Shown here: piece by piece, positions 46,396 through 64,000 of the stretch
How the letters are laid out: each line of letters opens with the position of its first letter
How positions within the stretch are numbered: the first letter of the stretch is position 1
NCBI RefSeq assembly: GCF_040267685.1
Contig: NZ_CP158367.1
Coordinates: forward strand, 992,001-1,056,000
Reading direction: 5' to 3'
Source: Proteinivorax tanatarense
GTDB taxonomy: Bacteria; Bacillota; Proteinivoracia; Proteinivoracales; Proteinivoracaceae
DNA: 64,000 nt
The notes under the pieces: generated by a model
Seen by the model: the letters and a program-made list of their open reading frames with translations, nothing else
Told to the model about the DNA's origin: nothing
The model's database searches: none
Translations under genes and position numbers: made by a program

Positions 46396-46441
46396 TCAGT
46401 ATCCAAGCCGTTCCAAATAAAAACGAAAGGAGGTCCTATCC

Positions 46442-47668
46442 ATGAATTTATTTGTTGGTATTGATGTTAGTTCTCAAAAGCTTGACACTTGTTTGCTTAA
46501 CAGCGAAGATGAGGTTTTACTTGAAGTTTCTCTACCTAATAGTTTGGTTGGTGCTAAAAAAATCAAAGAATATATTATCCAATTTGATGAGCACATAAAC
46601 TATGACCGTATTATCGTTGGTATGGAGGCCACCTCTATTTACAGCTTTCATCCTGCTACTTTTTTAGCGGAAGACTCTGATTTAAAAGCACTGGAAATAG
46701 AGGTCGCTGTCATAAACCCAAAACAAATCTCTAAGTTTAAAAAGATGTTTGATGAAGATAAGACGGATACAGTAGATGCATACCGTATCGCAGACTTTCT
46801 CCGCTTTGACCGTTTTAACGTTTCCTTGATCAAAGAAGAAAAATATATGGCATTGCAACGGTTGACTCGGTCACGTTACCAGCTAGTTGGACAGCTAGCT
46901 GAGATGAAACAACACTTTATAGAAAACCTCTATTACAAATGTAATACCCTCACCAAAGAAGTTGATACATCTATTTTTGGTGCAACTATGATGGATTTAC
47001 TAACTGACTCTATCACTCTTGATGAAATCGCTGATTTGTCTTTAGAAGATTTAGTGGAAGTTCTTCAACAAAAAGGCAAAGGTCGGTTTAGTGACCCAGA
47101 AAAGCTTGCAAAATCAATTTCTAAAGCTATTAAAGACTCTTACCGCCTTGGTGACATGATGCAGGATTCAGTAGATGTTGTTTTAGCTTCATATGCTATG
47201 ATGATTAAAACCCTGAAAAAACAAATCAAAGAGCTTGATAAAGCAATCGGGCGTTTATTTAAAACAATACCTGAATCTAAGTCTTTACTTAGCATACCTG
47301 GTGTTGGCCCAGTTTATGCCGCCGGTATAATCGCAGAATTAGGTCAAATTGAACGCTTTGAAAATGAAGCAAAGGTAGCAAAGTATGCTGGCTTACATTG
47401 GAAAAGAAAGCAGTCTGGTGATTTTGAATCCGAAAGAACAAATATCACAAAGACAGGCAATCGTTACCTTCGATATTACTTGATTGAAGCTGCCAATTCA
47501 GTGATGCGAAATGAACCTGTCTATAGAGAGTATTATCTTAGAAAGTATGAAGAAGTACCTAAGAATCAACATAAAAGAGCACTCGTCCTTACCGCAAGAA
47601 AATTTGTGCGCATGGTGGATGCGCTGCTACGCAATCACCAATTTTATGCACCAGAAAGGAGTGCATAA
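46442..47668 (+). CDS. IS110-family recombinase (transposase)
   Basis: A 408-residue DEDD recombinase. Catalytic-fold acidic residues are placed at LFVGIDVSSQKLD (Asp), IVGMEATSIY (Glu) and DKTDTVDAYRIADF (Asp pair). A coiled segment follows (IKTLKKQIKELDKAI), then the Transposase_20 domain SLLSIPGVGPVYAAGIIAEL with SERTNITKTGNRYLRYYLIE, where the catalytic serine of the family should be. AAAGGAGGTCC ribosome site. Intact and probably active, given the clean insertion into a related element. It shares only distant similarity with the interrupted copy. Confidence 0.95.
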   Translation: MNLFVGIDVSSQKLDTCLLNSEDEVLLEVSLPNSLVGAKKIKEYIIQFDEHINYDRIIVGMEATSIYSFHPATFLAEDSDLKALEIEVAVINPKQISKFKKMFDEDKTDTVDAYRIADFLRFDRFNVSLIKEEKYMALQRLTRSRYQLVGQLAEMKQHFIENLYYKCNTLTKEVDTSIFGATMMDLLTDSITLDEIADLSLEDLVEVLQQKGKGRFSDPEKLAKSISKAIKDSYRLGDMMQDSVDVVLASYAMMIKTLKKQIKELDKAIGRLFKTIPESKSLLSIPGVGPVYAAGIIAELGQIERFENEAKVAKYAGLHWKRKQSGDFESERTNITKTGNRYLRYYLIEAANSVMRNEPVYREYYLRKYEEVPKNQHKRALVLTARKFVRMVDALLRNHQFYAPERSA

Positions 47669-48475: not shown

Positions 48476-48931
48476 ATGTTTGAATTTAAGGACCTAGATT
48501 ATTTGACAGATGGTGAAATTGATTTAATAATTCAGGAAAAAATACCAGCTAATAAGGAAAGGGAATTTCTGCCTGCATATAAATACAGCATTACTTTACA
48601 TAATTGCAGCGACCCCATAGGTAATATTGATATTCGCATTGGATACAACGAGAATATATATTATGGAGGCAATATAGGCTACGAAATCGATGAAGCTTAT
48701 AGAGGTAATAGCTATGCTGCAAAAGCGTGCAAAATAATAAAAAGGGTAGCTCTTTCTCATGGCATGAATAAGCTGATAATAACATGTAATCCTGACAACT
48801 TCCCATCTAAAAGAACATGCGAAAAAATTGGTCTGAAACTAAAAGAAATAGCAGATTTGCCTAAAGATAACGAGATGTATCAAAGAGGAGAAAAGCAAAA
48901 ATGTATATTTGAGTGGAATTTAAAAGAATAA
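48476..48931 (+). CDS. GNAT-family N-acetyltransferase
   Basis: A 151-residue acetyltransferase. The CoA-binding motif region GGNIGYEIDEAYRGNSYAAKACKIIKR (near residues 62-88) has the core R-G-x-x-x-A, and the motif B region NPDNFPSKRTCEKIGLK follows. The RimJ-like layout suggests modification of a small substrate or a protein N-terminus, but the specificity is unknown. A decayed paralogue lies at 50605-50879. The next gene is a glutaredoxin 50 bp away, in the same order as in the decayed copy. Confidence 0.88.
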   Translation: MFEFKDLDYLTDGEIDLIIQEKIPANKEREFLPAYKYSITLHNCSDPIGNIDIRIGYNENIYYGGNIGYEIDEAYRGNSYAAKACKIIKRVALSHGMNKLIITCNPDNFPSKRTCEKIGLKLKEIADLPKDNEMYQRGEKQKCIFEWNLKE

Positions 48932-48981
48932 AAAAGTAAAATTTGTTTCAAACAAAAATAATTTAATGGAGGTGATACTAA

Positions 48982-49215
48982 ATGAAGGAATTAAAACTGT
49001 TTATAATGAAAACATGCCCTTTTTGCCAAAAAGTAGAAAGGTATATGAAGGAAAACAATATATCTATAGAAGTGGCAGACATAAAGGAAGACCCTAAGAG
49101 CAAAGAAGAGCTCATAGAGCAAGGTGGTAAAGTTCAAGTGCCAATGCTTCTTATCGATGAAAAACCATTATATGAGTCTAATGATATTATTGATTGGCTT
49201 AAAGAGAATAGTTAG
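48982..49215 (+). CDS. Glutaredoxin-like protein (NrdH/Grx type)
   Basis: A 77-residue thioredoxin-fold protein with the redox site CPFC (residues 12-15, in MKTCPFCQKVERYMKE), the cis-proline KVQVPMLLID and a C-terminal helix DIIDWLKENS. It reduces disulfides or mixed disulfides. GGAGGTGA ribosome site. Linked to the GNAT gene; both are duplicated and decayed at 50605-50980. Followed by the terminator-tipped dispersed element. Confidence 0.92.
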   Translation: MKELKLFIMKTCPFCQKVERYMKENNISIEVADIKEDPKSKEELIEQGGKVQVPMLLIDEKPLYESNDIIDWLKENS

Positions 49216-49225
49216 AGGGCAGACT

Positions 49226-49440
49226 GCATATAAGCACCTTCTTCGTTATAATCTAACACCAGAATCTCCTAACGTATTAAAAGTTACGATTCGGGATTCT
49301 GAGTGTCTAAGTTAAGAATTATAGCACTTCTAAGTAGTATGAGCGAATTATAAAAACTGATTAGAAAAAACAAGACTCCCGCGTGTTACTTATACGCTGG
49401 GAGTCTTGAATTTTTGTGCCTAGAATCTGAGTAAATCTAA
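49226..49440 (+). repeat. Terminator-tipped dispersed element, copy B
   Basis: GCATATAAGCACCTTCTTCG begins the element. A first hairpin (CAGAATC/GATTCTG, 49264-49301) and then a terminator (CAAGACTCCC 49371-49380 with GGGAGTCTTG 49399-49408) follow. The loop GCGTGTTACTTATACGC is also paired at its ends. TCTAAGTAGCC closes it. Stem sequences differ from copies A and C while loop and flank sequences are conserved. Confidence 0.7.
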
Positions 49441-49468
49441 GTAGCCTATATATAGGGTATATTTTTTG

Positions 49469-49525
49469 AAGTCATCCTGAGCTTGCCGAAGGATCTAGCC
49501 CACAAGGGCGCAGGACCCACAAAAC
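49469..49525 (+). repeat. Dispersed CCTGAG...GAAGG repeat
   Basis: GTCATCCTGAGCTTGCCGAA and GGATCTAGCCCACAAGGGCG, following the terminator-tipped element just as at 8198 and 51171. Confidence 0.8.
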
Positions 49526-49562
49526 GGTTAGGGAAGATCCTAGCAGCAAATAACAAAAGTAA

Positions 49563-49856
49563 CAGTTACTTTAGAGCTAGATGAGCTATTGAAAGTAAGA
49601 CCGATGTAAACGAAGAAATGCTAAATCAAATAAACAAGGATTCTTATAAAATCTCTATAATAACATATGTAAATAACGTAAATCAGATAATAAAGCAAGA
49701 AGAGAAAATATATTATGAAATGGAATTGCTAGGTGATTCTGTCAAATTAGAAAACAACATGACTATCAAATACTGGGACTAAACAAAGATATAGACATAA
49801 AGCTACCAGATTTTGACGACATCAATACAACAAGGCTAGAAGATGCAATTAATTAA
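49563..49856 (+). pseudogene. Frameshifted gene remnant
   Basis: Three overlapping frames read like one decayed protein: VTVTLELDELLKV, then SKTDVNEEMLNQINKDSYKI with SIITYVNNVNQIIKQEEKIY (ATG 49618 to stop 49782), then LNKDIDIKLPDFDDINTTRL to a stop at 49854. Frameshifts lie near 49590 and 49780. The composition is that of a real soluble protein, but no family is recognised. Confidence 0.4.
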
Positions 49857-49898
49857 GAAGAAAAGTCCTTTCCTATCCAACATGTAAAAAAAAGTAGA

Positions 49899-50559
49899 GG
49901 GGAATTCATTCCCCGGTATAAAATAGGAGGCAAGTCAAATCTCATCACTTTTGCACCAAAACAACGTAGCAGGCAATTTATTGCCTGCGGACATGGAAAC
50001 CCAAATGACTACAACTTCCAACCTCACACCTCCCACTACTCAAACGGTAATTCATTGCCTGCGGGCAGGGAATCCCAGATGACTCAAACTTCCAACACTC
50101 TAATTAACAGATAATAGACAACCTAAATAACACTTTACTTTCCAACAATCCCACTATCTTCTATCCAACTAGATACCATAGGAAGTAAGTGTATCATTTT
50201 AAAATATTTGCTAGGGTAGATTCGAGTTTGCCATTTTACTTATGGGCTAAGATATTCCTCTGCTGTTTCTCCACATGCCCGACACCTTCGGCTTATGAGA
50301 CGACATATCCATGTCTCTGATGTTAATGAGAGATAGCTCAACGCCAAAGGCTTACTCACAGGGAGAAAAGACGCAGATGACTAATACGCCCTGCCAGCAA
50401 AATGGCAAACCCTCAGCAGGTGGAAGCGGGCTTCATTCTTATCCACCTACTATAAGTTGTCTCTTGCCGTGTAGAGGGGAATTAATTCCCCGGAGAAAAT
50501 AGGAGAGGTCAATCTCATTTAATCACCACCAAGAACGTAGCAGGTAATTTATTGCCTGC
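49899..50559. repeat. Cluster of short hairpin repeats
   Basis: GGGGAATTCATTCCCC (49899-49914), GCAGGCAATTTATTGCCTGC (49969-49988), a half copy near 50046-50062, GGGGAATTAATTCCCC (50476-50491) and GCAGGTAATTTATTGCCTGC (50540-50559) occur in 660 bp. Each is followed by similar text (ATGGAAACCCAAATGACT and variants). A copy is at 40873. Between them (50200-50470) is non-repetitive DNA with dyads such as AGGTGG/CCACCT, perhaps an old mobile-element end. No gene is supported. Confidence 0.75.
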
Positions 50560-50604
50560 GTACATGAAAACCAAAATGGTACCGACTTCTAACATCTTTA
50601 CACA

Positions 50605-50980
50605 TACAACATAACCTTACAAAATTCAAATGACCCTATAGGCAATATTGATATCCGCATTGGCTACAACGAAAACATATATTATGGCGGCCATATAGGT
50701 TATGGAATAGATGAAGCCTATAGAGGCACAGCTACGCTTCAAAAGCTTGACAAAATTTTAAAACAGGTAGCCACTTCCCATGGAATGAATAAAATGATAA
50801 TAACATGCAACCCTGGCAACTGGCCCTCAAGAAGAACCTGCGAAAAGGCTGGTCTAAAACTAAAAGAAATAGCAGATCTGCGGAAAAGTCCAAGTGCCAA
50901 TGCTACTAATAGACGGAAAGCCGTTATATGAGTCGGAGGAGATTATTAAGTGGTTTAAAAGTAGGCCAGACAGCTTATAA
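50605..50980 (+). pseudogene. Decayed GNAT-glutaredoxin pair
   Basis: 50605-50879 translates as NDPIGNIDIRIGYNENIYYG...CEKAGLKLKEIADL, a second copy of the GNAT protein from about residue 37 on, with a compensated pair of frameshifts near 50718. At 50885 the sequence jumps to KVQVPMLLIDGKPLYESEEI, the C-terminal part of the glutaredoxin in another frame, ending at the stop 50978-50980. A deletion thus fused the two genes, and the GNAT start is missing. Confidence 0.88.
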
Positions 50981-51150
50981 GCGCCTATCTTCGTTGTTGT
51001 GGGACACTCACCACTTAAGCAGACAGCAGTAATTTGTGAGTGTTCCACGCCCGGATCTAAAACATTTAAAAATCCAAGACTCCCACGCGTTACTTATACG
51101 CTGGCGTTTTGGATTTTTTTGTGTATCGATCTTAAACAATTCTAAGCAGC
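50971..51150 (+). repeat. Terminator-tipped dispersed element, copy C
   Basis: CAGCTTATAAGCGCCTATCT, a hairpin GGGACACTCAC/GTGAGTGTTCC, then AATCCAAGACTCCC with TTGGATTTTTTT closing over CGCGTTACTTATACGC. TTCTAAGCAGC follows. A CCTGAG repeat comes next (51171-51225). Copies B and C lie in paralogous segments, copy A does not. Confidence 0.7.
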
Positions 51151-51170
51151 TAGTGCGGTCTTACTTTTTG

Positions 51171-51225
51171 AAGTCATCCTGAGCTTTGCCGAAGGATCTA
51201 GCCCATAAGGGCGCAGGACCTATGA
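51171..51225 (+). repeat. Dispersed CCTGAG...GAAGG repeat
   Basis: GTCATCCTGAGCTTTGCCGA and the following AGGATCTAGCCCATAAGGGC. The sequence 51226-51600 downstream holds no repeat that I recognise. Confidence 0.8.
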
Positions 51226-51581
51226 AACAATCAGGAAATGGGCCTAACACTCAAACCAACCTTTAATTTCGGTACTGGAGTTTTTCTGTGTTGCGGGTAT
51301 AAGTACTTCTATTCTGGGTATTTGATGCATGTCAAAAATGACTACCATGAATTACACATGGATGAAGTATAAAAACACTCAGCGCATAGGTGAGTAATTT
51401 CTTACAGTTACTGACTTAATTAAGTGTTATGTTAGCCATAGGGAAGAGATTCTCTTAGCAGGACAGTAACTACGTTGCATAGTTGTTTTTAGAAAAACTT
51501 GACACGATAAGTTGCTTTTTTTAATCACTTTTTAATGACTATAGTTTAATAATTGAACCGTTACAAGAAGTTATTTTATGT

Positions 51582-51587
51582 TATAAT
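51582..51587 (+). promoter_or_regulatory. Probable -10 box of the defence operon
   Basis: A consensus TATAAT lies 35 bp before the first gene of the island, with TTACAA 15 bp upstream as a weak -35. The intergenic DNA before it (51226-51560) contains no gene and ends the repeat-rich zone. Confidence 0.5.
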
Positions 51588-51622: not shown

Positions 51623-53350
51623 ATGTGGTGTGTAAACTGCGATAAAGAGGTAGCTACAGATACTTGCCCTGATTGTAATATGAAAACGCAGGATGATATA
51701 CCTGTAGAGGTGTATTTTTGCCCTGAGTGTAATGTTCCAGTTATAAGGGAGCTAAACTCAAAGGTTAAAGAAGTGTGCCCGTTATGTAAAGGAAAAACAA
51801 AATACTTAAGTAAGGATCTTAGGCCAGTCTTTCCACAAGAAAGGCTGCTTTTTGAGTTAATGAAATATAAACCGGGAGACCTAATAAACGATTCTGTATG
51901 GTGTAACAACGCGATGTATTATATAAATGGAAAATCTAAAAGTTTATCTTCTACAGATATGAAGAAATCTGACCCACAAAAACTAAGAGATCTCCTTCAA
52001 AAGCACAAAATAGATAATAGTGTTGAAATATTTAATCAATACAAAAGTAAATTTATACAGGCTAATAAAGAAAGGTTAGAAAAATTAAAAACAGAAGCAT
52101 ATCAATTTATCAATGAAGCTAGAAAAGGCTACACAGACCAACAACTTATAGTATCTTTCTCAGGTGGAAAAGATTCAACAGTAGTTTCTGACTTAGTGAT
52201 TAAAGCTTTAGGAAATCCACAGGTATATCATATATTTGGAAATACAACCCTTGAGTTTCCACTTACCATCGAATATAAAGATAGGTTTCGAAAAGAAAAT
52301 CCAATGACCGTAATGCGCGAGGCTAAAAATAGAGAAAAAGATTTTTATGAAGCTTGTCATGAAATAGGGCCACCAAGTAGAGTTATGAGGTGGTGCTGTA
52401 CTATGTTTAAAACAGGTCCAATTACAAGGACAGTAAACAGCATGGCTAGAAGGAGCAATGTCCTCACCTTTTACGGCATAAGAAAGTCTGAATCTGCTAG
52501 TAGAAGTAAGTATGACAGAATTTATGACAGCCCAAAAATTATGAAGCAAAAGGTCGCTTCTCCAATTTTTAACTGGAAAGATATAGATATATGGTTATAT
52601 TTACTTGGTGAAGATGTTGACTTTAACGATGCCTATAGATTAGGTTTTGACAGGGTGGGATGCTGGTGCTGCCCTAACAATAGCGAACGCTCTCACTTTT
52701 TAGCTAAATTGTATATGCCTGATGAATCTAAAAAATGGAGAGATTTTTTAATTGGCTTTGCGAAGGCGATTGGAAAGCCTGATGCAGAAGAGTATGTAGA
52801 TAGTGGAAACTGGAAAGCTAGGCAGGGTGGTTACGGAGTAGCTGCAGCTAAGGATGTAAAAATTAATAATTCTGCTTGTACTGCTGACGAAAATGCCCAG
52901 ATATATGAGCTGTTTAGACCATTAGAGGAAGAACAGTTTTATAACCTTTTTGTACCATTTGGCAGGGTTTCTAAGGGTTTAGGTAGAAAATTACTTAAAG
53001 AAGTTTTAATTTTGGATAAAAACAATGTGCCGATTATTTCTATACAACCTTACAAAAATAATACATCTGATAACTTAGTAAAGATACAAACGATGAACGT
53101 AAAAAACCATGAAGAACTGCAAAGAAAAATATCTTATCAACTACGAAAATATAATGCCTGTAGAAAGTGTTTAGGCTGTGAATCAGTTTGCAAGTTTAGA
53201 GCTATAACGGTAAATGAATTAGGTTATAAAATAGATGAAAATAAATGTGTAAAATGCGGAATGTGTATAACCGATAAATATTTACGTGGTGGCTGTTTAA
53301 TGTCTAAATACTTATTTTCAGCTAACGAGGGGGAAAAGAATGAAGTTTAG
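51623..53350 (+). CDS. PAPS-reductase/DndC-like sulfurtransferase with zinc ribbons and ferredoxin domain
   Basis: 575 residues. Two N-terminal zinc ribbons (CVNCDKEVATDTCPDC and FCPECNVP...VCPLCKGK) precede a PP-loop ATPase of the PAPS-reductase type with SGGKDST (near residue 181), RWCCTMFKTGPITR and GCWCCPN, the cysteine layout seen in DndC/BrxP-like proteins. The C-terminus is a ferredoxin domain: CRKCLGCESVC and CVKCGMC. In DNA phosphorothioation DndC activates sulfur transfer; BrxP of type-4 BREX has a similar domain. The gene starts the operon and overlaps the DUF4007 gene by 11 bp. An electron- or sulfur-transfer role in DNA modification is inferred. Confidence 0.88.
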   Translation: MWCVNCDKEVATDTCPDCNMKTQDDIPVEVYFCPECNVPVIRELNSKVKEVCPLCKGKTKYLSKDLRPVFPQERLLFELMKYKPGDLINDSVWCNNAMYYINGKSKSLSSTDMKKSDPQKLRDLLQKHKIDNSVEIFNQYKSKFIQANKERLEKLKTEAYQFINEARKGYTDQQLIVSFSGGKDSTVVSDLVIKALGNPQVYHIFGNTTLEFPLTIEYKDRFRKENPMTVMREAKNREKDFYEACHEIGPPSRVMRWCCTMFKTGPITRTVNSMARRSNVLTFYGIRKSESASRSKYDRIYDSPKIMKQKVASPIFNWKDIDIWLYLLGEDVDFNDAYRLGFDRVGCWCCPNNSERSHFLAKLYMPDESKKWRDFLIGFAKAIGKPDAEEYVDSGNWKARQGGYGVAAAKDVKINNSACTADENAQIYELFRPLEEEQFYNLFVPFGRVSKGLGRKLLKEVLILDKNNVPIISIQPYKNNTSDNLVKIQTMNVKNHEELQRKISYQLRKYNACRKCLGCESVCKFRAITVNELGYKIDENKCVKCGMCITDKYLRGGCLMSKYLFSANEGEKNEV

Positions 53351-54245
53351 AGGTCACGAAACATTTCATATAAGGCAAGGTTGGCTATTTAAAGGCCTAA
53401 AGCAAATAGAAAAAAAAGAGGATATTTTTTTAAGCAAGGATCCTAAACCTACAGATGTGTTAGGGATGGGTAATAACATGGTTAAATCCCTAAGATATTG
53501 GTTACAGGCAGTAGGATTAACCCAGGAGAAACAAGTAAAAAGAAAGACTGTACAGAAGCTGACGGATTTAGGGGAAATTATCTGGGATAAAGACAAGTAT
53601 ATTGAGGAATTAGGAACTTATTGGATACTTCATTATGAATTAGTTTCCAATAACCAATTAGCTCCTACTTGGAACTGGTTCTTTAATCATTTTAATATTA
53701 AAGAGTTTAACAAAGAGGATTTTGTTAATAGTTTACAAAGTTATGTTAAATTTGAGACAGAAACAAAGGTTGCTAAAAGCTCGCTAGATTCAGATTTTAG
53801 TTGTCTCGTAAACTTTTATGTGCCAAGGCGGGTTATGCATCCTGATAAAATATCTCCTGAGGATACACTAGATTGCCCCTTTGGCCAACTAGATTTAGTT
53901 GGATTGAAAGACCGCAAGGAAAGGGTTTACATCAAAAAAACCCCTAAAGTCTCAAATATTCCGCCCAAAATTGCTTTAGCTATTTTAGTAAAAAATCTTG
54001 ATGGTAGAAAAGAAGTGAGTATAAATGAAATATTAACCTCCTGTAATAATCTAGGTAAAGTATTTAGTTTAAACATCAATACTCTTAATGCTTTGCTAGA
54101 TGAACTAAAACAGCTAGGTTATATAACTATAAACAGGACCGCAGGGTTAGATGTTGTTAATCTACCAAACGATTATAAGTATCTTACCTTAATAGAACAA
54201 TATTATAATGACTTAAACACAGGATTGAGGGGAGAGCATGCATAA
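53340..54245 (+). CDS. DUF4007 protein
   Basis: 301 residues starting MKFRGHETFHIRQGWLFKGL, a signature start of DUF4007. It contains TDVLGMGNNMVKSLRYWLQA and, near the C-terminus, a winged-helix-like part (INEILTSCNNLGKVFSLNIN, LDELKQLGYITINRTAG). Members occur next to PAPS-reductase-family proteins and large ATPases in phage-defence gene groups. DNA or protein binding is likely; the biochemical role is not known to me. It overlaps both neighbours (11 and 8 bp), so all three are translationally coupled. GAGGGGG ribosome site lies inside the preceding gene. Confidence 0.88.
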   Translation: MKFRGHETFHIRQGWLFKGLKQIEKKEDIFLSKDPKPTDVLGMGNNMVKSLRYWLQAVGLTQEKQVKRKTVQKLTDLGEIIWDKDKYIEELGTYWILHYELVSNNQLAPTWNWFFNHFNIKEFNKEDFVNSLQSYVKFETETKVAKSSLDSDFSCLVNFYVPRRVMHPDKISPEDTLDCPFGQLDLVGLKDRKERVYIKKTPKVSNIPPKIALAILVKNLDGRKEVSINEILTSCNNLGKVFSLNINTLNALLDELKQLGYITINRTAGLDVVNLPNDYKYLTLIEQYYNDLNTGLRGEHA

Positions 54246-57200
54246 AATAGATTTATCAAAGTTTATAAAAGTATCACCTAACTTTCAATATTCTATAAAC
54301 CTAAAATATGACTTTAACAGCAGAGATAAAGTTAAAAGTTATATACCAACTAGTAGCACCTATGAAATTTTTGAAGACTTTCTATTAAGCATGAATAAAG
54401 GAAAATCAAATGGAAGAGCAAAGTTGTTAACCGGGCCATATGGAAAAGGGAAATCACACCTAGTGTTAATGTTACTAGCTTTTTTTTATTATAAAAACAA
54501 AAACGTATACCCAAACTTTTTGGAGAAAATGAAAGAGCACAGTCCTAAGCTTTACAAAGCAGCTTTGGAAGAGATGGCAGATAATAAAAAGATGTTACCG
54601 GTTATTGTATCTGGTAGCAACATAAACATTAAGCAGTCTTTTTTGCAGGCTATAAAAAACTCTCTTGATAATGAAGGTATAGAGGATATTATGCCGGAGA
54701 CTTACTTCAATGCAGCAGTTGCTATGATACGTAAATGGTCAACAGAGTATCCTGAAACGTTAAAGAGGTTTACTGAATTAACTGAAATGGACTCTGAGAA
54801 GTTTATAAAAGGGTTAGAAAATTACAGTCATGAATATTATCAACAGTTTTTAGACGTATACCCTAAAATAACATCTGGTAGTGAGTTTAACCCACTTCAA
54901 GACTTAGATATTGTAGAACTATACGAAGATGTATTGCAGCAAATAAAGCCAATAGGTTATAAAGGGCTATTTATTGTGTATGACGAGTTTAGTAAATACT
55001 TAGAAGGAAGTATTGATAGAAATTCAGCTTCTGAAATAAAGTTTTTACAAGACTTAGCAGAAAAATGCAATAAGGGTGGAAAAGAAGATGAGGTTTTCCA
55101 GTTGCTGCTAATCACCCATAAAAGTATAAGTTCCTATGTAGATAGATTACCAAAAGAAAAAGTAGATGCATGGAAAGCTGTTGCTGAAAGATTTAAGACT
55201 ATAGAAATAAGTCATGCCGATAATCAAACGTATGAATTGATGTCAAATACTATAATAAAAGATCATGAGGTTTTTACTAAATTTAAAGACGACAAAAAGG
55301 AAGAGTTTAAAAGCCTTTATAAAAAATTAAGAGAAGTTAACAACGGAGAAAACTTAGAAGAGCAAAAAACAATAGTGGAAGGATGCTACCCACTCCATCC
55401 ACTTTCCTCGATACTTTTGCCGAGTGTTTCAGAAAAAGTTGCACAAAATGAAAGAACTATTTTCACATTTTTATCTGCTGACGATAAAAATACCCTAGGC
55501 AATTTTTTAAAAAAGGACTTCTGTGGGTTTACAACACTAACGCCAGACTATATTTATGACTACTTTGAACCCCTGTTTAAAAAAGAGAACTATACGTCGG
55601 ATACTTATAAAACTTGGAGAGATGCTAAGAGTTCGTTGACAAAGGTATCAACAGAATTAGAAAGGAAGATTATTAAAACTCTATGTTTAATCTATATAGT
55701 TGGTAATTTCCGCAAAATACCACCTACTAAGAAAGTTATTATTGAGTCATTAAGTCATTATGGTGACGAAAAAGAAGTCATGGATTGTATTGAGAAACTA
55801 ATAAGTAGCAAAAACCTCTACTATGTCAAAAGTAAGGGCTATTTAAAATTTATCGAAGCTACCGATATCGACGTTCAGCAGTTGATAAATGATACTAAAG
55901 AACTTAGAAAAAATACCTATGACAAGTCTAGCCCGTTAAATATTAATCTATTCAATAACTTTATTTTAGCTACTCGATACAATGTAGAGCGTGAAATCAG
56001 AAGGTACTTTAGTATACAGTTTATTGATACTAAGGAGCTGAGCAGTGTAGAAAACTGGGACAAAAAACTAAAAGCTATAGATGGTGACGGGGTTTTATAC
56101 TGTGTAACTGCTAAAGACTCAGCAGATATCGATAAGGCAAAAGACATGATTAACAATATCGAGCACGATAGGATTGTTTTTGTAACTCCCAAAGACAAAT
56201 TAGATATTGATAAAGTTTTAGGAGAATACGATGCTATAAAATATTTGATTGATAAAAATGCTTATGAGGATAAAGACCCACTCTTAAATGCTGAATTAGA
56301 GGTTTACTTAGAAGATACAGTAGACCAATTATTTACCTATTTAAGTTACTATCTTTATCCGGAGCATAACAAAGCCTCCTACTTTTACAAAGGTGAACAG
56401 TTAGAAATAAAAAGAAGAACGACGCTGAACAAACTTGTTTCCGATATTTGTTATGAAGTGTATCATTCAACCCCGGTTATACCAAATGAACTTATAAATG
56501 TAAGTAAGCCATCAAATACAGCTCAAAACTATAGAAGAAAAGTATTAGAAGGTCTTTTACAAAACAGGTTACAACCAAGCTTAGGGCTTATAGGTCATGG
56601 GCTTGATGTTACAATAATGAGAGCAACTTTAATAAACACTAATATACTCAAAGAAAGTAATGGTCAATGCTACGTAAATATTAATGGGGATGACTTAGAC
56701 CCAAATATAAAAAATATTCTTAGTAAGATAAGAGAATTTTTCCTTCTTACTACCAAGGAAGGAAAAACTAAGTTCTCAAAGCTATATGAGGTATTAACCG
56801 AGCCTAAACATGGTATCGGTTTGAGAAGGGGCTTGATCCCAATATTTTTATCTGTAGTTTTACATGAGTTTAAAAATAATATCGTTATAACTCAAAAGGG
56901 AATGGAGCTTGTTTTAGATGGCAAACTAGTTGATAGCATAAACACTAATCCAGAGCTTTATGAGGCATTTCTTGAGGACTTAAGTATAGAAAAAGAAAAT
57001 TATCTTAAAGATCTAGAGGGATTATTTGAAGGGTATGTTCTACCAGAAGAAAAAGAGTATAATAGCTTTGATTATGTCGTTAAAGGAATTCAAAGATGGT
57101 ATTTTGACCTGCCTAAGTTTGCTAAAGAGTATAAACAAGAATATCTAGGTAGTGGAGAATTTAACAAACTGCCTAAAAATATTATTAAGATTCGAAACAA

Positions 57201-57873
57201 GGTTAAACAATTTAATCCAAATGCCAATGAACTGCTATTTACCGACTTTGTTGAAGTAGCAGGTTCTTCAGACTACAAATCTGTTTTTGAAGAAGTGGAA
57301 GAATTTAAAAATAAGCTGGACCGTAGCTTAGAAAACCTACTTCAAATTTTATCTGATGAGACTCAAAGAATTTTTGGTGGGAAGTTACAGCAAGAAAGCC
57401 TACCTTCTGCATTAAAAAATTGGTATGAAGCTTTAGATGACTTTACTAAAAAACATGTAATAAGTAACAGTGCGAACAGTCTCTTAGAAACTAGTAAAGA
57501 TCCCAAAACCAATAACCCAAAGGAAATCATAAAAAAACTTAGCATTATAATAACAGGGTTAAGAATAGAAGACTGGAATGAAAACTCAATAATGCTATTT
57601 TTAGAAAAATTAACAGAACTAAAAAATAATATAGATGAACTAGACAAAGCAAACATTAATCAATCGGACGCGGCACAAACAGAATCATATGTACTAACTT
57701 ATATTGATGAAAATGGCGAGAAAAAAGATAGGATATTAAAGAAAAAAGAGCCATCAAACACTGCAAAAATCTTGCTAAATGAACTGACCACAATATTTGA
57801 AGAGTATGGTGCTGCTGTAGATGAAAATGATAAGAGACAAATCCTAATGGAGATGTTACAGAAAATGTGCTAG
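54238..57873 (+). CDS. BrxC/PglY-like large P-loop ATPase
   Basis: 1211 residues. Walker A is GPYGKGKSH (66-74), Walker B-like GLFIVYDEFSKYLEG (near 241-255) and a sensor-like LLITHKS (near 288). The N-terminal third is AAA-like; the rest is helical with long charged segments (residues 1000-1150). This plan, and the position with a sulfurtransferase, resembles the BrxC/PglY ATPase of BREX. Alternatively it is a DndD-like substitute, but no SMC-like Walker A/hinge/Walker B arrangement is visible. It is the last gene before a terminator (57879-57917). Confidence 0.75.
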   Translation: MHKIDLSKFIKVSPNFQYSINLKYDFNSRDKVKSYIPTSSTYEIFEDFLLSMNKGKSNGRAKLLTGPYGKGKSHLVLMLLAFFYYKNKNVYPNFLEKMKEHSPKLYKAALEEMADNKKMLPVIVSGSNINIKQSFLQAIKNSLDNEGIEDIMPETYFNAAVAMIRKWSTEYPETLKRFTELTEMDSEKFIKGLENYSHEYYQQFLDVYPKITSGSEFNPLQDLDIVELYEDVLQQIKPIGYKGLFIVYDEFSKYLEGSIDRNSASEIKFLQDLAEKCNKGGKEDEVFQLLLITHKSISSYVDRLPKEKVDAWKAVAERFKTIEISHADNQTYELMSNTIIKDHEVFTKFKDDKKEEFKSLYKKLREVNNGENLEEQKTIVEGCYPLHPLSSILLPSVSEKVAQNERTIFTFLSADDKNTLGNFLKKDFCGFTTLTPDYIYDYFEPLFKKENYTSDTYKTWRDAKSSLTKVSTELERKIIKTLCLIYIVGNFRKIPPTKKVIIESLSHYGDEKEVMDCIEKLISSKNLYYVKSKGYLKFIEATDIDVQQLINDTKELRKNTYDKSSPLNINLFNNFILATRYNVEREIRRYFSIQFIDTKELSSVENWDKKLKAIDGDGVLYCVTAKDSADIDKAKDMINNIEHDRIVFVTPKDKLDIDKVLGEYDAIKYLIDKNAYEDKDPLLNAELEVYLEDTVDQLFTYLSYYLYPEHNKASYFYKGEQLEIKRRTTLNKLVSDICYEVYHSTPVIPNELINVSKPSNTAQNYRRKVLEGLLQNRLQPSLGLIGHGLDVTIMRATLINTNILKESNGQCYVNINGDDLDPNIKNILSKIREFFLLTTKEGKTKFSKLYEVLTEPKHGIGLRRGLIPIFLSVVLHEFKNNIVITQKGMELVLDGKLVDSINTNPELYEAFLEDLSIEKENYLKDLEGLFEGYVLPEEKEYNSFDYVVKGIQRWYFDLPKFAKEYKQEYLGSGEFNKLPKNIIKIRNKVKQFNPNANELLFTDFVEVAGSSDYKSVFEEVEEFKNKLDRSLENLLQILSDETQRIFGGKLQQESLPSALKNWYEALDDFTKKHVISNSANSLLETSKDPKTNNPKEIIKKLSIIITGLRIEDWNENSIMLFLEKLTELKNNIDELDKANINQSDAAQTESYVLTYIDENGEKKDRILKKKEPSNTAKILLNELTTIFEEYGAAVDENDKRQILMEMLQKMC

Positions 57874-57878
57874 TAATT

Positions 57879-57917
57879 AAAACCCGTAATTGAAATGACT
57901 TTTATTACGGGTTTTTC
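57879..57917 (+). terminator. Terminator between the ATPase and desulfurase genes
   Basis: AAAACCCGTAAT (57879-57890) pairs with ATTACGGGTTTTT (57903-57915). It ends the first module of the island. The desulfurase needs read-through or a promoter of its own. Confidence 0.85.
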
Positions 57918-57939
57918 TACAATGGAGGTATGTATAAAA

Positions 57940-59091
57940 ATGATATACATGGATAACGCTGCTACAACTTTTCCCAAACCGGAGAAAGTATACGAGCAAA
58001 TGGATAAATTTTATCGTCAATACGGAGTAAATGTAGGGCGTGGTCAACATAATTTAGCCAGCAAGGCTTCTAGGCTTGTACAAGAGACAAGAATTAAGCT
58101 GAAGACCCTATTTAACTGTAAACCAGAACACGAAGTGATTTTTACTCCTTCTGCAACTGAGGCTATAAATATAATTTTACAGGGGCTGACTTATAATTAT
58201 GACGAAACAATATATATAACACACTTTGAGCACAATGGAGTTTTAAGAACCTTAAATCATCTCCAGGAAAAATACAATTTACAAATTGAGTATATACCGA
58301 TTGATAAAGAAAGCCTTTCATATGATTTAGAAGAAATTAAGTATAAGTTCCAAGAAAAAAGACCAAGTAAAGTGATTTTAAACCATGCAAGTAATGTATG
58401 CGGACTTATCACGCCCATAGGAGAAATTACAAAGTTAGCTAAGGCTTATAATGCTGAAATAATCGCCGATTGTGCCCAAACAGCTGGATTGTTAGAAATT
58501 GACCTTGTAGCTGATAAAGTCGATTTTCTAATTTTTGCTGGACACAAAACTTTATATGGTCCTTTAGGGGCTTCAGGCTTTATTATGGAACGGAGTAAAG
58601 CTTTAAGACCGTTAATGTACGGAGGGACAGGAGTAGAATCCGCAAACCCTAAACTTCCTAAAAAATTACCAGATAAGTTTGAAGTGGGGAGCATAAATAT
58701 CCATGCTATATCTGGACTTAATGCAGCACTTAGGTTTATTGAAGAAACTGGCATACAGAACATAAGAAAAAAGGAAAAAAAGCTTACCTTAAAGGCAATA
58801 GAAACATTAAAAAAGCATAGAGAAATAAAACTCTACACTCCGGATGATATAGAAAACCAAGTAGGAATCATCTCTTTTAACATACCAGGGTACTCTGCTG
58901 ATATTATAGGCAACTTTTTAAACGAAAATGAAATTGCAGTAAGAACTGGACTTCAATGTGCACCGCAGGCTCATAAATTCTTAGGAACTGATCCTGCTGG
59001 AACAGTGAGAATAGGGTTAAGTTATTTTAACAACTTAGCTGACATTGAGCAGTTAGATAATGTATTAGAAGAGCTGCTGTTAGAGATTTAA
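57940..59091 (+). CDS. Cysteine desulfurase, DndA/IscS/SufS family
   Basis: About 383 residues. It starts MIYMDNAATTFPKPEKVYEQ, contains PLP-binding residues (EQTAT-like FTPSATEAINIILQG, DCAQTAGLLEIDL and the lysine in FAGHKTLYGPLGASGF) and ends with the active-site cysteine in VRTGLQCAPQAHKFLGTDP. It releases sulfur from L-cysteine as persulfide. In phosphorothioation the DndA/SspA desulfurase supplies DndC. ATG 57940 has GGAGGT at 9 bp, giving the family start, so upstream ATG 57895 is rejected. Located between two defence modules. Confidence 0.95.
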   Translation: MIYMDNAATTFPKPEKVYEQMDKFYRQYGVNVGRGQHNLASKASRLVQETRIKLKTLFNCKPEHEVIFTPSATEAINIILQGLTYNYDETIYITHFEHNGVLRTLNHLQEKYNLQIEYIPIDKESLSYDLEEIKYKFQEKRPSKVILNHASNVCGLITPIGEITKLAKAYNAEIIADCAQTAGLLEIDLVADKVDFLIFAGHKTLYGPLGASGFIMERSKALRPLMYGGTGVESANPKLPKKLPDKFEVGSINIHAISGLNAALRFIEETGIQNIRKKEKKLTLKAIETLKKHREIKLYTPDDIENQVGIISFNIPGYSADIIGNFLNENEIAVRTGLQCAPQAHKFLGTDPAGTVRIGLSYFNNLADIEQLDNVLEELLLEI

Positions 59092-59204
59092 ATTTTTGCG
59101 GTTATACTAATTTTCGGAGAAGGGGTGAGATAGTAAGGTTAGTGATTTATTAATTGGATAATGATTAAAACTTATACAACCAAAACAATAAAGAGGTGAT
59201 TTTG

Positions 59205-60884
59205 ATGGAGAAAAATAGTTTTGTATATTATCTAGATCAGTTTAATGTACTGTCTCCGAACCATTCTAAGATCTATGACGAATACACATCAGGTACAGAA
59301 TTTTCCGAATATAACTTTACTATAAAAACCAAAGTGCAAAACCAATTAATTTCTTATTTTAAGCAAAACCCACAAAATGTGATCTTGACGGGAAATGCAG
59401 GGGATGGAAAAACTAGGTTATGTCGAGTAGTATATGATGAACTAAGTAACAAAAAATTAAATGATTGGCCAGAAAAAGGCATTATAGATATTGACTTCAA
59501 GTTTGGTACACTTAGAGTAGTAAAGGATCTTTCTGAATTAAAAGATGATGTGATTTTGCATCAACTAAAAGAGTTGCAGAAATCTATGCTTGATAAAAAG
59601 AGGAAGTTATATTTTTTAATTGCAGCAAATGAAGGGAAATTAACAAAATTTATATCAAAATATGATGAGTTAGAAAGTCTCAGAGAGGAAATTATGTTAA
59701 GGTTTGAATCTCATTATAATAATAATGAACAACTGAATTTGATTAACCTTTTAGATATTACCTCATCAGTCTATGTTAAGGAAATTTTAAATAATTGGAA
59801 TAGAGAGGAAAATTGGGAATCTTGCCGTCAGTGTACAAAAATTGAAAGTTGCATTATTTTCTTGAATCATAAGAGGTTGTCTGTTGATCTAATTAAAGAT
59901 AGAATTTTAGAACAATATCGCATACTAGATTATCTAGATATTCATATTACTATGCGGGAATTGTTAATCCACATGAGTTTTACAATAACAGGCGGCCTGT
60001 TATGTAATGATATCCATGAAGCACAGTATAAAGAATTAGCTGAACAATCTAAGAAGGTATACTATGAAAACTTCTATGGAGAAAATGTGAAAGCTAATGC
60101 ATTTGTAGATATGAAGGCGGTTAAAGCGTTACGAACTATTGATGTTGGGGTCTCCTCCCAGTCAGAGGTTGATGATTTTATAGTTAATGGTGATATCAGT
60201 GGGGATGAAAAACTTGAAAAATACCATAAAAAACTTTTTGATGAAGACCTAGATATGTCTTATGGCTATTTTACAAGGAAATTAAAACGATATAGAGACC
60301 ATAATGGTGTTGCCGATAATGATTTTATAGATGATTGGGTACAGAGGCTGCGGAGGAAATTTTATTTTGAGGCTATAGATGAAATTGAGATAAATCGAAG
60401 ATTGCTATTGCCTTTTCAACACTTAGGTCAATATGAGAATTTGTTCAATAATCCAAGGGAAAAAGTTACTGTACGACCCAAATTAATTAACGGTCTAAAT
60501 CGTTCTTTTACAAATAGACTTGTTAAACCATCACAGAGTTTGTTTGCTACAAGTCAGAATTTAATGATTTACGATGAATTTAGAGGAAGAACATTAGAAA
60601 TTAAAGACCAAGAGGGCAGGGAAGATATTGACTTTATCCCTTCGAAATTTAAGTTAGAGATCAGTCCGGAAGTAAAATTACAAATGAATTTGTATATATT
60701 TGAATATTTAATGAGGGTTAATAGTGGGGGAACTCATAATGTTCTTAGTGAAGAAGCTCATATTCTAATTGATACATTTAAAAATGATTTGCTAAGAATA
60801 AGTGAACCTGAGGAATATGTATTGAACATTTTAAGACTAGATAGAGAAACAGGTCTTTATGTAGATGACCAAATAGAATTATAA
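59205..60884 (+). CDS. dptF: DptF-like P-loop protein of phosphorothioation-dependent restriction
   Basis: About 559 residues. Walker A GNAGDGKT (63-70) is in the spacing seen in DptF-type proteins. The cysteine motif CRQCTKIESC (near 205-214) follows and then MRELLIHMSFTITGGLLC, as in DptF and related defence ATPases. DptF, DptG and DptH together cleave or block DNA lacking phosphorothioate. ATG 59205 has AAGAGG at 8 bp (a GTG 59196 overlaps that site). It is followed by an unrecognised protein and a large third gene, the same order as dptFGH. The symbol is tentative; homology was judged by eye only. Confidence 0.6.
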   Translation: MEKNSFVYYLDQFNVLSPNHSKIYDEYTSGTEFSEYNFTIKTKVQNQLISYFKQNPQNVILTGNAGDGKTRLCRVVYDELSNKKLNDWPEKGIIDIDFKFGTLRVVKDLSELKDDVILHQLKELQKSMLDKKRKLYFLIAANEGKLTKFISKYDELESLREEIMLRFESHYNNNEQLNLINLLDITSSVYVKEILNNWNREENWESCRQCTKIESCIIFLNHKRLSVDLIKDRILEQYRILDYLDIHITMRELLIHMSFTITGGLLCNDIHEAQYKELAEQSKKVYYENFYGENVKANAFVDMKAVKALRTIDVGVSSQSEVDDFIVNGDISGDEKLEKYHKKLFDEDLDMSYGYFTRKLKRYRDHNGVADNDFIDDWVQRLRRKFYFEAIDEIEINRRLLLPFQHLGQYENLFNNPREKVTVRPKLINGLNRSFTNRLVKPSQSLFATSQNLMIYDEFRGRTLEIKDQEGREDIDFIPSKFKLEISPEVKLQMNLYIFEYLMRVNSGGTHNVLSEEAHILIDTFKNDLLRISEPEEYVLNILRLDRETGLYVDDQIEL

Positions 60885-60905
60885 AAAAACGAGGGGGGAC
60901 TATAA

Positions 60906-62480
60906 TTGAGTCGACCAAGGGGAAACACAAGTTTTTCGTCACAGTTGTCAGAAAGTATTTGGGGACATCGTTTTATGGACGGACAAAGAGGTCCTGAATA
61001 TATTTTAGAATTTTTAAACGTTATGTCAGGAACAGGGTATCAACTAGGTGCCGAAAGATATGAAAGAAAAAAAATGACAAGTTTTCGTAGATTTATTTTT
61101 GAAGGTTCTAAAGAAGGACGAAATAATGAAATTGTTCATTTAGAAGAAGAAGAACGAAAAAAGCTTTATGAAGGTATAGCAGAGAAAGAAAAAATCAACG
61201 TTATTAAAGAATTTTTTAGGAATCTAGAAGTTTCAATATATGATGGTAGAGGAAGGCCATCAAATAGATCGTGGTATGCAAAGACCTTATATCCACTTCA
61301 TGAATCTCTTTTATTTTTCGAGGTGAGAAAAAAGGGGAAGACTGTTTCATTTGAACGTAATTTTTTTGCTAGAGGTGGAGAATTGTATTATCTCATGATT
61401 TCTATGGGAGTTGAAAATAACCCGCAATTGAAAGAATCTATAGAGAGTAGGTTACAAGAGCTACTTTCTAAAAATAAACCTATAGAATCAGTAGTTAAGT
61501 CAATAACGAAATCTACTAACTACGAGACACAAAGCTCTGAAGAAAAGAAAGCGCCCCTAGTTGCTAGCGAAAAGAACGAATTGCACCCCTATTTACCTAA
61601 CGATGTTAATGTTGACTTATTCGAAAGGTTTGCAGTTGAGTTTAATAATTTGATACATCTAAATATTGAAATGTATGAAATGTTTAATTTGATGATTAGC
61701 CTTGTTACCTTCCAAATAATGCGTTACCTCCTTGAAAGAGTAAATTCAGATGAAAAATCACAGGTATTTGTGGATGTAATGGATGGACAAGTTCAGCAAA
61801 TAATGAAGCTGTCATCCGAGTCATTTGCGAAGAATGAGTTGTTAATTAAAAGGAAATATGAGAAGGTTTTCCAAGAAATTTTTAATGATAGAATACAAAA
61901 CAAAAATTTTGTGGAAGAAAATTTGGAGGATTGGAAAAAAGAAGATGGACATGCGTTTTTTAAAATGATTGGTTTAGGAAGCCTTCATAAAAAAACAAAA
62001 CAAAGGGCAACAAGGGTTTTACAAAGCTGTAAAAATTATGAAGATGTAACGACTAAACTTTATAATGTCGTAAAAGATATAATTGATGATCAGCTTAAAA
62101 AACATCAGTTGCCGATTGTTCGTGGGCTGGTGAGAGATGGTGGGTTAGGTGGTTTTAGAGCTGGCACTAAATATCGCTATTTCATGACTGATAGCTTTTT
62201 GAAAATCCTTGTTTTTAGTAATGTAAACTCTAAACAACCTATGGAATTTAGCGACTTTATCGAGCAATTGTATAAAAAATATGGAATAATCATTGGGGAA
62301 GTGCAAGCTAAAAAATCTGGTTTGTACGAAGAGTCAAAACTTAATATTAGATACTTCCAAAGAAATGAGCAGTCACTACGCGATAAACTCCGTCAAAATG
62401 GCTTATTAGTTGAATACTCAGATGCTACTGCTATGATCAAGAATCCATATGAAAATGTTGATAATGGGGTGAATGCATGA
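60906..62480 (+). CDS. Unrecognised protein in the DptG position
   Basis: 524 residues starting SRPRGNTSFSSQLSESIWGH. Basic N-terminal half with QRGPEYILEFLNVMSGTGYQ, a helical C-terminal half, and a winged-helix-like end (SKLNIRYFQRNEQSLRDKLR). No P-loop or cysteine cluster. The position after a DptF-like gene and before a large partner suggests DptG, but I cannot recognise DptG from the sequence. TTG start with GAGGGGGG; it overlaps the next gene by 4 bp (ATGA). Confidence 0.75.
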   Translation: MSRPRGNTSFSSQLSESIWGHRFMDGQRGPEYILEFLNVMSGTGYQLGAERYERKKMTSFRRFIFEGSKEGRNNEIVHLEEEERKKLYEGIAEKEKINVIKEFFRNLEVSIYDGRGRPSNRSWYAKTLYPLHESLLFFEVRKKGKTVSFERNFFARGGELYYLMISMGVENNPQLKESIESRLQELLSKNKPIESVVKSITKSTNYETQSSEEKKAPLVASEKNELHPYLPNDVNVDLFERFAVEFNNLIHLNIEMYEMFNLMISLVTFQIMRYLLERVNSDEKSQVFVDVMDGQVQQIMKLSSESFAKNELLIKRKYEKVFQEIFNDRIQNKNFVEENLEDWKKEDGHAFFKMIGLGSLHKKTKQRATRVLQSCKNYEDVTTKLYNVVKDIIDDQLKKHQLPIVRGLVRDGGLGGFRAGTKYRYFMTDSFLKILVFSNVNSKQPMEFSDFIEQLYKKYGIIIGEVQAKKSGLYEESKLNIRYFQRNEQSLRDKLRQNGLLVEYSDATAMIKNPYENVDNGVNA

Positions 62481-64000
62481 AAACGAGAGATAAAATCTTA
62501 AGCAAATGGATTACTAAGGTACTATTTAAATATTTTAATGTGCAATCTAAAGAAGGGACACCAAAAATTTTTATTAAAATTAGTGGTTTGTTAGATAGAG
62601 AGTTAATGTACTTCTTAGATGCCTTTAAGCAGCAGGAAGACAAGTTGGCTAGTTTTTATAATCCTGTAGTTAGGTTGATTAAACCTATGGATGGATATGA
62701 AGATTTTAGCTTAAAGGAGCATGAGACTAGTATATGGTTAAGAAATAATACTCAGGCAAATGAAGCGCTAATTATTCTAGTAAATGAAACGACTCCAGAA
62801 GCACAGAGCTTAGAAAATCTTTTCTCAATTGATGAAGCTTTTTTACTATCTCACAAAGGCTTAAAAGAGTTATACGAAGTGTTGTCGGAAGAGTACAGGC
62901 TAGTTTCTGAAGAAATAGATGATTTGAAAAAATTTTATAATATTTTTAGTAAAGTCTCAGAACCACAACTACGGACTTTAATTGAGTTTATAGCTTTTTT
63001 AATTGAGAGTGAAGAAAATTCAATTGTAAAGAGTATTCAGAAGGGATTGCCGATTTTAGATCTATTTGTTGATGACCATTTAATGATTGAAGACTCAAAT
63101 GTTAAACGGTTGCGTAGGAATTTTGCGTTAGCTAACCTAATAAGTAAGAATAGCAATATAGAAAAGCTAAAGGATAAAATGTATACTTTTTTAGACAATG
63201 AAGAGAGAAATAAGTTTCCACATGATATTTGGAAAGAAACAAGTCCTGAAAATTTTAGGGAAATGGCGTTAAATTTTATTAATAAAGAAGATAAAAGGTT
63301 GCTGAAATTTAATTTTGAGGTTATTGAAGAAGTTTTTAATTTTAGGGAAAAAACAAAGCTTAAAGATAGAATAAAGGATGTTTTAGAGTACAATAACCGT
63401 TCGACCGATGAGAAAAGTAAAATAGATACTGGAATTGAGACAGTTGAAGAGAATGAAGCAGCCGATGATATTCAAGAATTTTATGAAGAGTTTGAGAATG
63501 ATTTTGAAAAAGATAAGAATTTAAAAAGGATTATAATACGTCGAATAGAGAAATTAAGACATCCATCTGAATATGATGACATATATGAAGCGCTATTATA
63601 CGAGGCTTATGGTCTACTTAGTGAGTGTTTAGACGAGCAGGAACTTAAAGATGTATACTATGAACTGTCTACAGCTGAAAGTAGGTTACCAAGCGAAGCA
63701 ATACAGTTTTTAGATATATATGTGCAAAACATACAAAATCAGGTGCCTTTAGTTCGCTATAAAAGTAAAGAAATAGAAGAGGATAATAGTATAAAATTTA
63801 AGGAGATTACGTTTGAATTACGAATATTTAATCAAAACTCTAAAATAAAGGCTAAATCTTTCAAAATCGTTAATTTATCTAATAGTACCTTCTCTATTTT
63901 TGTTAATAGTATTAAAAACGCAGAATTACCTAAAATAATCCAATATAAAAACGAAACTATTTCTAAAAGAAATATTGCAGACGATATAGGGGAAAACATT
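62477..64000 (+). CDS. Large protein in the DptH position, N-terminal 508 residues (runs off the window)
   Basis: ATG 62477 overlaps the previous stop (GCATGA) and the frame stays open to the last base, so at least 508 residues are encoded. The visible part reads MKTRDKILSKWITKVLFKYF and is mainly helical and charged, with a coiled-coil-prone acidic stretch (DDIQEFYEEFENDFEKDKNL). It ends within a beta-rich segment. No Walker motif is seen yet. In dptFGH the third gene encodes a large helicase/HerA-like ATPase whose P-loop would lie further on. It is not in the window, so this is inference from order. Confidence 0.8.
   Translation, partial: MKTRDKILSKWITKVLFKYFNVQSKEGTPKIFIKISGLLDRELMYFLDAFKQQEDKLASFYNPVVRLIKPMDGYEDFSLKEHETSIWLRNNTQANEALIILVNETTPEAQSLENLFSIDEAFLLSHKGLKELYEVLSEEYRLVSEEIDDLKKFYNIFSKVSEPQLRTLIEFIAFLIESEENSIVKSIQKGLPILDLFVDDHLMIEDSNVKRLRRNFALANLISKNSNIEKLKDKMYTFLDNEERNKFPHDIWKETSPENFREMALNFINKEDKRLLKFNFEVIEEVFNFREKTKLKDRIKDVLEYNNRSTDEKSKIDTGIETVEENEAADDIQEFYEEFENDFEKDKNLKRIIIRRIEKLRHPSEYDDIYEALLYEAYGLLSECLDEQELKDVYYELSTAESRLPSEAIQFLDIYVQNIQNQVPLVRYKSKEIEEDNSIKFKEITFELRIFNQNSKIKAKSFKIVNLSNSTFSIFVNSIKNAELPKIIQYKNETISKRNIADDIGENI

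What the first reader, a model, noticed from the sequence alone, without database searches (positions are those of the whole stretch)
51623..64000. Hybrid sulfur-based defence island: BREX-4-like front, phosphorothioation-like back
The sequence shows PAPS-reductase/zinc-ribbon/ferredoxin protein, DUF4007 and a 1211-residue BrxC/PglY-like ATPase in tight overlap, then a cysteine desulfurase, then a DptF-like P-loop gene and two partners. DndC-type enzymes and DndA desulfurases are known from phosphorothioation, BrxP/BrxC from type-4 BREX, DptFGH from restriction of unmodified DNA. The combination, with no dndB, dndD, dndE, brxL or pglZ visible in 12.4 kb, suggests a minimal or novel modification-plus-restriction system in which a BrxC-like ATPase replaces DndD. 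Parts may lie beyond 64000.
Basis: partly seen in the sequence, partly recalled or inferred. Interest (0 to 1): 0.85.

Follow-up and report, generated by a model that had tools for sequence, protein, structure and literature searches.

The report
SspABCD-SspFGH phosphorothioate defence operon
This is a complete copy of an already described bacterial immune system that marks the cell's own DNA with sulfur and attacks unmarked DNA; its one less common feature, a larger iron-sulfur version of the sulfur-transfer enzyme, is also already known from related systems.

Summary
Profile searches place all seven genes in one described system, SspABCD-SspFGH (mBio 2021, PMC8092258): sspD-sspB-sspC-sspA-sspF-sspG-sspH. 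I read past the window end: sspH is 1704 aa, ends at window-equivalent 67591, and carries a C-terminal FtsK/SpoIIIE motor. The genome has no PglZ, DndD or DUF262/SspE, so SspFGH is the only restriction partner found.

The one departure from the textbook system is SspD. It is the long BrxP-type form: zinc ribbon, PAPS-reductase domain, C-terminal 2x[4Fe-4S] ferredoxin. This form is already reported for BREX-4 and for a subset of Ssp systems (NAR 2026, PMC12839542).

A survey of relatives adds one point. Close copies of the sspD-B-C-A cassette are mostly followed by PbeA/PbeC/PbeD-type genes (24 of 40 surveyed), some also carry a DUF262 gene, and only this locus and one other adjoin SspFGH. In a tree the window's SspD nests among Pbe-linked cassettes, which suggests that a common sulfur-writing cassette swapped its attack module.

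Verdict: new member of a known kind, low to moderate interest.

The parts
51560..51587 (+). promoter-like site (GTTACA-16-TATAAT, extended -10), 36 nt upstream of sspD; AAGGAGG ribosome site before the ATG
   Evidence: consensus scan only (L002:3560-3587); the region as a whole holds no more promoter-like sites than shuffles
51623..53350 (+). sspD, BrxP-type, 575 aa: N-terminal zinc ribbon (C33/36/52/55), PP-loop SGGKDS 180-185 PAPS-reductase domain with C258-C259/C347/C350, C-terminal 2x[4Fe-4S] ferredoxin (C513-C558)
   Evidence: BrxP 1.2e-80 and SspD 2.3e-13; PAPS_reduct 1.7e-32; cysteine conservation; model pLDDT 77 with APS/PAPS reductases as nearest solved folds
53340..54245 (+). sspB (DUF4007), 301 aa, DNA-recognition/nickase component
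   Evidence: PADLOC SspB 2.9e-65; DUF4007 1.1e-84; solved SspB chain 6juf 1.8e-22
54238..57873 (+). sspC, 1211 aa, BrxC/PglY-like AAA+ ATPase; Walker A GPYGKGKS (66), Walker B LFIVYDE (244)
   Evidence: PADLOC SspC 2.9e-130, BrxC 9.5e-47; motifs
57879..57917 (+). terminator-like hairpin with a T run between sspC and sspA (possible attenuator)
   Evidence: -15.8 kcal/mol, z -3.56, no shuffle as stable; hairpins of different sequence at the same place in L007 and L009
57940..59091 (+). sspA, cysteine desulfurase (longest ORF from 57895); PLP lysine AGHKT, catalytic Cys in RTGLQCA
   Evidence: PADLOC SspA 8.4e-46; TIGR01977 3e-131, over its cut-off; motifs and starts
59205..60884 (+). sspF, P-loop NTPase (longest ORF from 59196); Walker A GNAGDGKT; conserved C210/C213/C219
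   Evidence: PADLOC SspF 1.6e-208
60906..62480 (+). sspG, 524 aa (TTG start), no recognised nuclease motif
   Evidence: PADLOC SspG 1.2e-109; alignment of six homologues
62477..64000 (+). sspH, 1704 aa in full (continues to window-equivalent 67591, L002:14477-19591); C-terminal FtsK/SpoIIIE motor, Walker A GTTGSGKS (1484), Walker B LVIVFDE (1581)
   Evidence: SspH 1.7e-111; FtsK_SpoIIIE 4.5e-42

Best explanation
The operon is an SspABCD-SspFGH phosphorothioate (PT) restriction-modification system with a BrxP-type SspD. Proposed working: SspA takes sulfur from cysteine and passes it to SspD, a PP-loop PAPS-reductase-like sulfurtransferase that probably carries an APS-reductase-type cluster plus a fused ferredoxin. 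SspB (DUF4007) selects and nicks the site, the SspC ATPase acts with it on DNA, and sulfur is placed on one strand of the host motif. SspFGH (P-loop SspF, SspG, FtsK-type motor SspH) damages DNA lacking this mark and so blocks phage replication. The seven gene assignments are shown here; the biochemical steps are inferred from the named systems; the motif and the strand specificity in this organism are unknown.
For: Model hits for all seven genes, Pfam support, a solved SspB relative, intact catalytic motifs, operon overlaps and ribosome sites. In the published system sspBCD with iscS and sspFGH protect E. coli against phages, and sspFGH alone is toxic to PT-lacking cells (PMC8092258). The same D-B-C-A gene order recurs in relatives. 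No other PT restriction partner was found in the genome.
Against: SspD scores far better as BrxP than as canonical SspD. PT chemistry, motif and phage protection are untested. SspF is only about 25% identical to the nearest plasmid-borne relatives.
Confidence: 0.93

Rival explanations
1. Type-4 BREX or a BREX-4 derivative, with BrxP and BrxC as the core.
For: SspD matches the BrxP model at 1.2e-80 and SspC matches BrxC at 9.5e-47.
Against: No PglZ in the genome and no BrxL in the operon. SspC prefers SspC models over BrxC (434 vs 157 bits). True BREX-4 loci fetched as controls carry a fused BrxP-DUF4007 (686-1147 bits), BrxC, PglZ and BrxL and form a separate branch in the tree.
Confidence: 0.03
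2. One reading: a novel minimal system in which a BrxC-like ATPase replaces DndD and DptFGH restricts.
For: Gene functions correspond loosely to DndA, DndC and DptFGH.
Against: Each gene has a dedicated Ssp model hit, and the seven-gene combination is a described and tested system (PMC8092258).
Confidence: 0.03
3. Decayed or silent island: a writer cassette next to a non-functional restriction module.
For: Transposases and a decayed duplication lie on the upstream side, an IS3-type transposase just downstream; a terminator-like hairpin lies between sspC and sspA.
Against: All seven frames are open, with intact catalytic motifs and tight overlaps.
Confidence: 0.06

Closest known systems
SspABCD-SspFGH (Vibrio anguillarum FF-93, PMC8092258); also the sspFGH/sspDCBA cluster on Agrobacterium plasmid pAtK224b
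   Same: Same seven functions; SspF with Walker A; SspH with FtsK/SpoIIIE C-terminus; FGH next to the writer genes.
   Different: SspD is 575 aa with zinc ribbon and ferredoxin instead of about 280 aa; sspA lies within the operon; single strand and order D-B-C-A-F-G-H.
Type-4 BREX (brxPCZL)
   Same: BrxP-type PAPS reductase with ferredoxin-like cysteines, DUF4007, BrxC-family ATPase (PMC12839542).
   Different: DUF4007 is a separate gene, no PglZ or BrxL, SspC- rather than BrxC-type ATPase, SspFGH present.
DndABCDE-DndFGH
   Same: Cysteine desulfurase, PAPS-reductase-like enzyme, P-loop plus FtsK/HerA-type restriction trio.
   Different: No DndD in the genome, no DndB or DndE in the operon, and the FGH genes match Ssp rather than Dnd models.
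DndCDEA-PbeABCD (PMC6459918)
   Same: Close relatives of this writer cassette are followed by PbeA/PbeC/PbeD-type genes.
   Different: The window itself carries SspFGH, not Pbe.

Membership tests
SspABCD-SspFGH | SspB (DUF4007) gene | tested here: met
   SspB 2.9e-65; 6juf 1.8e-22
SspABCD-SspFGH | SspC ATPase (ORC/Cdc6-type AAA+) | tested here: met
   SspC 2.9e-130; Walker A and B present
SspABCD-SspFGH | SspD ATP-pyrophosphatase/PAPS-reductase-like | tested here: met
   PAPS_reduct 1.7e-32, SspD 2.3e-13, PP-loop invariant; BrxP-type variant, a subset already noted in Ssp systems
SspABCD-SspFGH | SspA or IscS cysteine desulfurase | tested here: met
   SspA 8.4e-46, catalytic Cys present
SspABCD-SspFGH | SspF (Walker A), SspG, SspH (FtsK/SpoIIIE C-terminus) | tested here: met
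   1.6e-208, 1.2e-109, 1.7e-111; FtsK_SpoIIIE 4.5e-42
SspABCD-SspFGH | single-stranded PT (5'-CpsCA-3' in the type system) and FGH restriction of PT-free DNA | not testable with these tools
   needs LC-MS/MS, PT mapping and phage assays
Type-4 BREX | PglZ | tested here: not met
   no PF08665 match in the genome
Type-4 BREX | BrxL next to BrxC | tested here: not met
   no BrxL hit among the seven operon proteins; rest of the genome not searched for BrxL
Type-4 BREX | PAPS-reductase/ferredoxin BrxP | tested here: met
   BrxP 1.2e-80, profile 21-518 of 779 only, not fused to DUF4007
DndABCDE-FGH | DndD ABC ATPase | tested here: not met
   TIGR03185: only a 20-bit match far below the cut-off, at genome position 3317
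SspABCD-SspE | SspE (DUF262) | tested here: not met
   no PF03235 match in the genome

The most novel reading that the evidence does not exclude
The BrxP-type sspD-B-C-A cassette is an effector-neutral PT writer that has repeatedly exchanged its attack module (Pbe genes, DUF262 genes, SspFGH). In the window's lineage an SspFGH set replaced Pbe genes, so one writer chemistry would serve readers with opposite logic: Pbe inactive without PT, SspFGH unleashed without PT.
Probability: 0.5. Interest if true: 0.45.

Novelty: new member of a known kind. Interest (0 to 1): 0.22.

Why it matters
The locus is a clean seven-gene example of SspABCD-SspFGH in Bacillota with a BrxP-type SspD. That ties Ssp and BREX-4 writers together, as the 2026 BREX survey proposed. 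The modest extra is the survey result: closely related writer cassettes sit beside Pbe, DUF262 or SspFGH modules, which would allow a test of whether one PT mark can serve different readers. A Pbe-Ssp pairing was not described in the papers I could search, but most subscription journals and preprints were out of reach.

Tried and rejected
BREX-4 membership: rejected, no PglZ in the genome, no BrxL in the operon, no BrxP-DUF4007 fusion. Dnd/Dpt membership: rejected. SspG structure prediction from two sequences: pLDDT 39.5, unusable, not searched; no solved relative by sequence. SspF in viral contigs with the single sequence: no relative; with an SspG alignment one distant contig, L120, holding the end of an F-like gene, SspG, SspH, a DUF262 protein and SspD-like genes. 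SspD in viral contigs: none. Herbivorax L013 (D-B-C) and L119 (A-F-G-H) were tested for contig overlap; none found, so they are not counted as one locus. Rfam: only a PyrR site far away.

Full report
What is there. The window lies at 992001-1056000 of a 3.09 Mb single-contig genome. Seven genes on the + strand run from 51623 past the window end. D/B overlap by 11 bases, B/C by 8 and G/H by 4. Reading on in the genome shows that the last ORF is 1704 aa and ends at genome 1059591, window-equivalent 67591. An IS3-type transposase follows.

What the genes are. PADLOC models give SspB 2.9e-65, SspC 2.9e-130, SspA 8.4e-46, SspF 1.6e-208, SspG 1.2e-109 and SspH 1.7e-111. The first gene matches BrxP 1.2e-80, SspD 2.3e-13 and DndC 1.6e-12. 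Pfam confirms PAPS reductase, DUF4007, class-V aminotransferase and FtsK/SpoIIIE. The DUF4007 protein matches the solved SspB (6juf) at 1.8e-22. Walker motifs are intact in SspC, SspF and SspH, and the desulfurase has its lysine and cysteine. This is the SspABCD-SspFGH system described in V. anguillarum (PMC8092258), where sspBCD with iscS places PT at 5'-CpsCA-3' and SspFGH damages PT-lacking DNA.

The SspD variant. The 575-aa SspD has a zinc ribbon, the PP-loop, a CC...CxxC set that I read as an APS-reductase-type cluster site (my inference), and a C-terminal double [4Fe-4S] ferredoxin. In 42 homologues the ribbon cysteines 33/36/52/55, the SGGKDS loop, C258, C259, C347, C350 and C513/516/519 are invariant, and C523/542/545/548/558 occur in 41. 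A model with pLDDT 77 finds APS/PAPS reductases as nearest solved folds. The 2026 BREX survey (PMC12839542) already states that BREX-4 BrxP, BrxC and DUF4007 are homologues of SspD, SspC and SspB, and that the ferredoxin-bearing arrangement occurs in a subset of SspD proteins. The variant is therefore not new. For contrast, the SspD on Agrobacterium plasmid pAtK224b is encoded by an 840-base gene beside an sspFGH set.

Not BREX-4, not Dnd. In 398 Bacillota genomes the BrxP model finds two classes: 14 genomes with near full-length matches (686-1147 bits, BREX-4 type) and a class scoring about 250-336 bits that includes the window (one further genome, G285, has a broken copy). A control locus of the first class is BrxP-BrxC-PglZ-BrxL. 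The window genome has no PglZ, no DndD and no DUF262 protein of the SspE kind. The same-genus genome G004 and three same-family genomes lack the sspD and sspF matches, which fits horizontal gain.

Relatives and effector swap. Twenty-four named loci carry SspD at 49-64% identity, and most keep the order D-B-C-A. None has SspFGH in reach; an SspF match occurs elsewhere in one of these 24 genomes (Herbivorax, G406). Instead PbeA (4.1e-251) and PbeC (8.4e-101) follow in many, and DUF262 genes in some. Adding 17 loci from the Bacillota sample, I labelled 24 of 40 cassettes as Pbe-linked by hand from tblastn hits; near-duplicate loci and short contigs are included in that count. SspFGH adjoins this cassette type in the window and in G137, where it lies on the other side together with a second DUF4007 and SspC-like pair. 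In a 49-row tree the BREX-4 proteins form one branch (support 86) and the window's SspD nests with L005/L006/L007/L009 (support 98), at least three of them Pbe-linked; the two SspFGH-linked cassettes need two separate changes. Support is SH-aLRT from a quick search, and the outgroup branches are long, so rooting is unsure. Swapping of attack modules is a reasonable inference from this, not a demonstration.

Expression. A promoter-like site precedes sspD (such sites are no commoner than in shuffles). A terminator-like hairpin lies between sspC and sspA (-15.8 kcal/mol, z -3.56), and hairpins of different sequence stand at the same place in L007 and L009 but not in most other relatives. It could keep the attack genes below the writer genes; this is inference.

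Limits. PT chemistry, motif and phage protection were not testable. SspG's fold could not be predicted. The literature search covered open-licence PMC papers only, and no paper found there describes Ssp-Pbe pairing.

Noticed in passing
window 48476-51240: A GNAT acetyltransferase gene (48476-48931) and a glutaredoxin-like ORF (48982-49215) are followed about 2 kb on by a decayed copy of about 80% identity (50599-50959) with shared flanking repeats: a degenerate tandem duplication beside the island.
   Followed up: partly
window 44726-47668; L003:421-1230: Two IS110-type transposase ORFs upstream and an IS3-type transposase downstream of the island.
   Followed up: no
L006, L007, L015, L059, L063, L065, L068, L069, L071 and others: BrxP-type sspD-B-C-A cassettes followed by PbeA, PbeC and a PbeD-type small gene: an Ssp-Pbe pairing not described in the papers searched.
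   Followed up: partly
L070/L118, L075, L077, L119: SspFGH sets followed by a second DUF4007 gene and a second SspC-like gene; in three of the genomes SspF is fused or extended (833-1524 aa, kinase-like domains in L118).
   Followed up: no
window 60906-62480 and sspH: SspG matches the MADS protein MAD7 model (1.3e-6) and SspH the mad8 model (9.8e-24), hinting that methylation-based MADS and PT-based SspFGH share parts.
   Followed up: no
window 57879-57917: Terminator-like hairpin between sspC and sspA, with counterparts of different sequence in L007 and L009.
   Followed up: partly
L120: A contig from the viral collection carries the end of an F-like gene, SspG, SspH and a DUF262 protein opposite SspD-like and ATPase genes, so the system may travel on mobile elements.
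   Followed up: no
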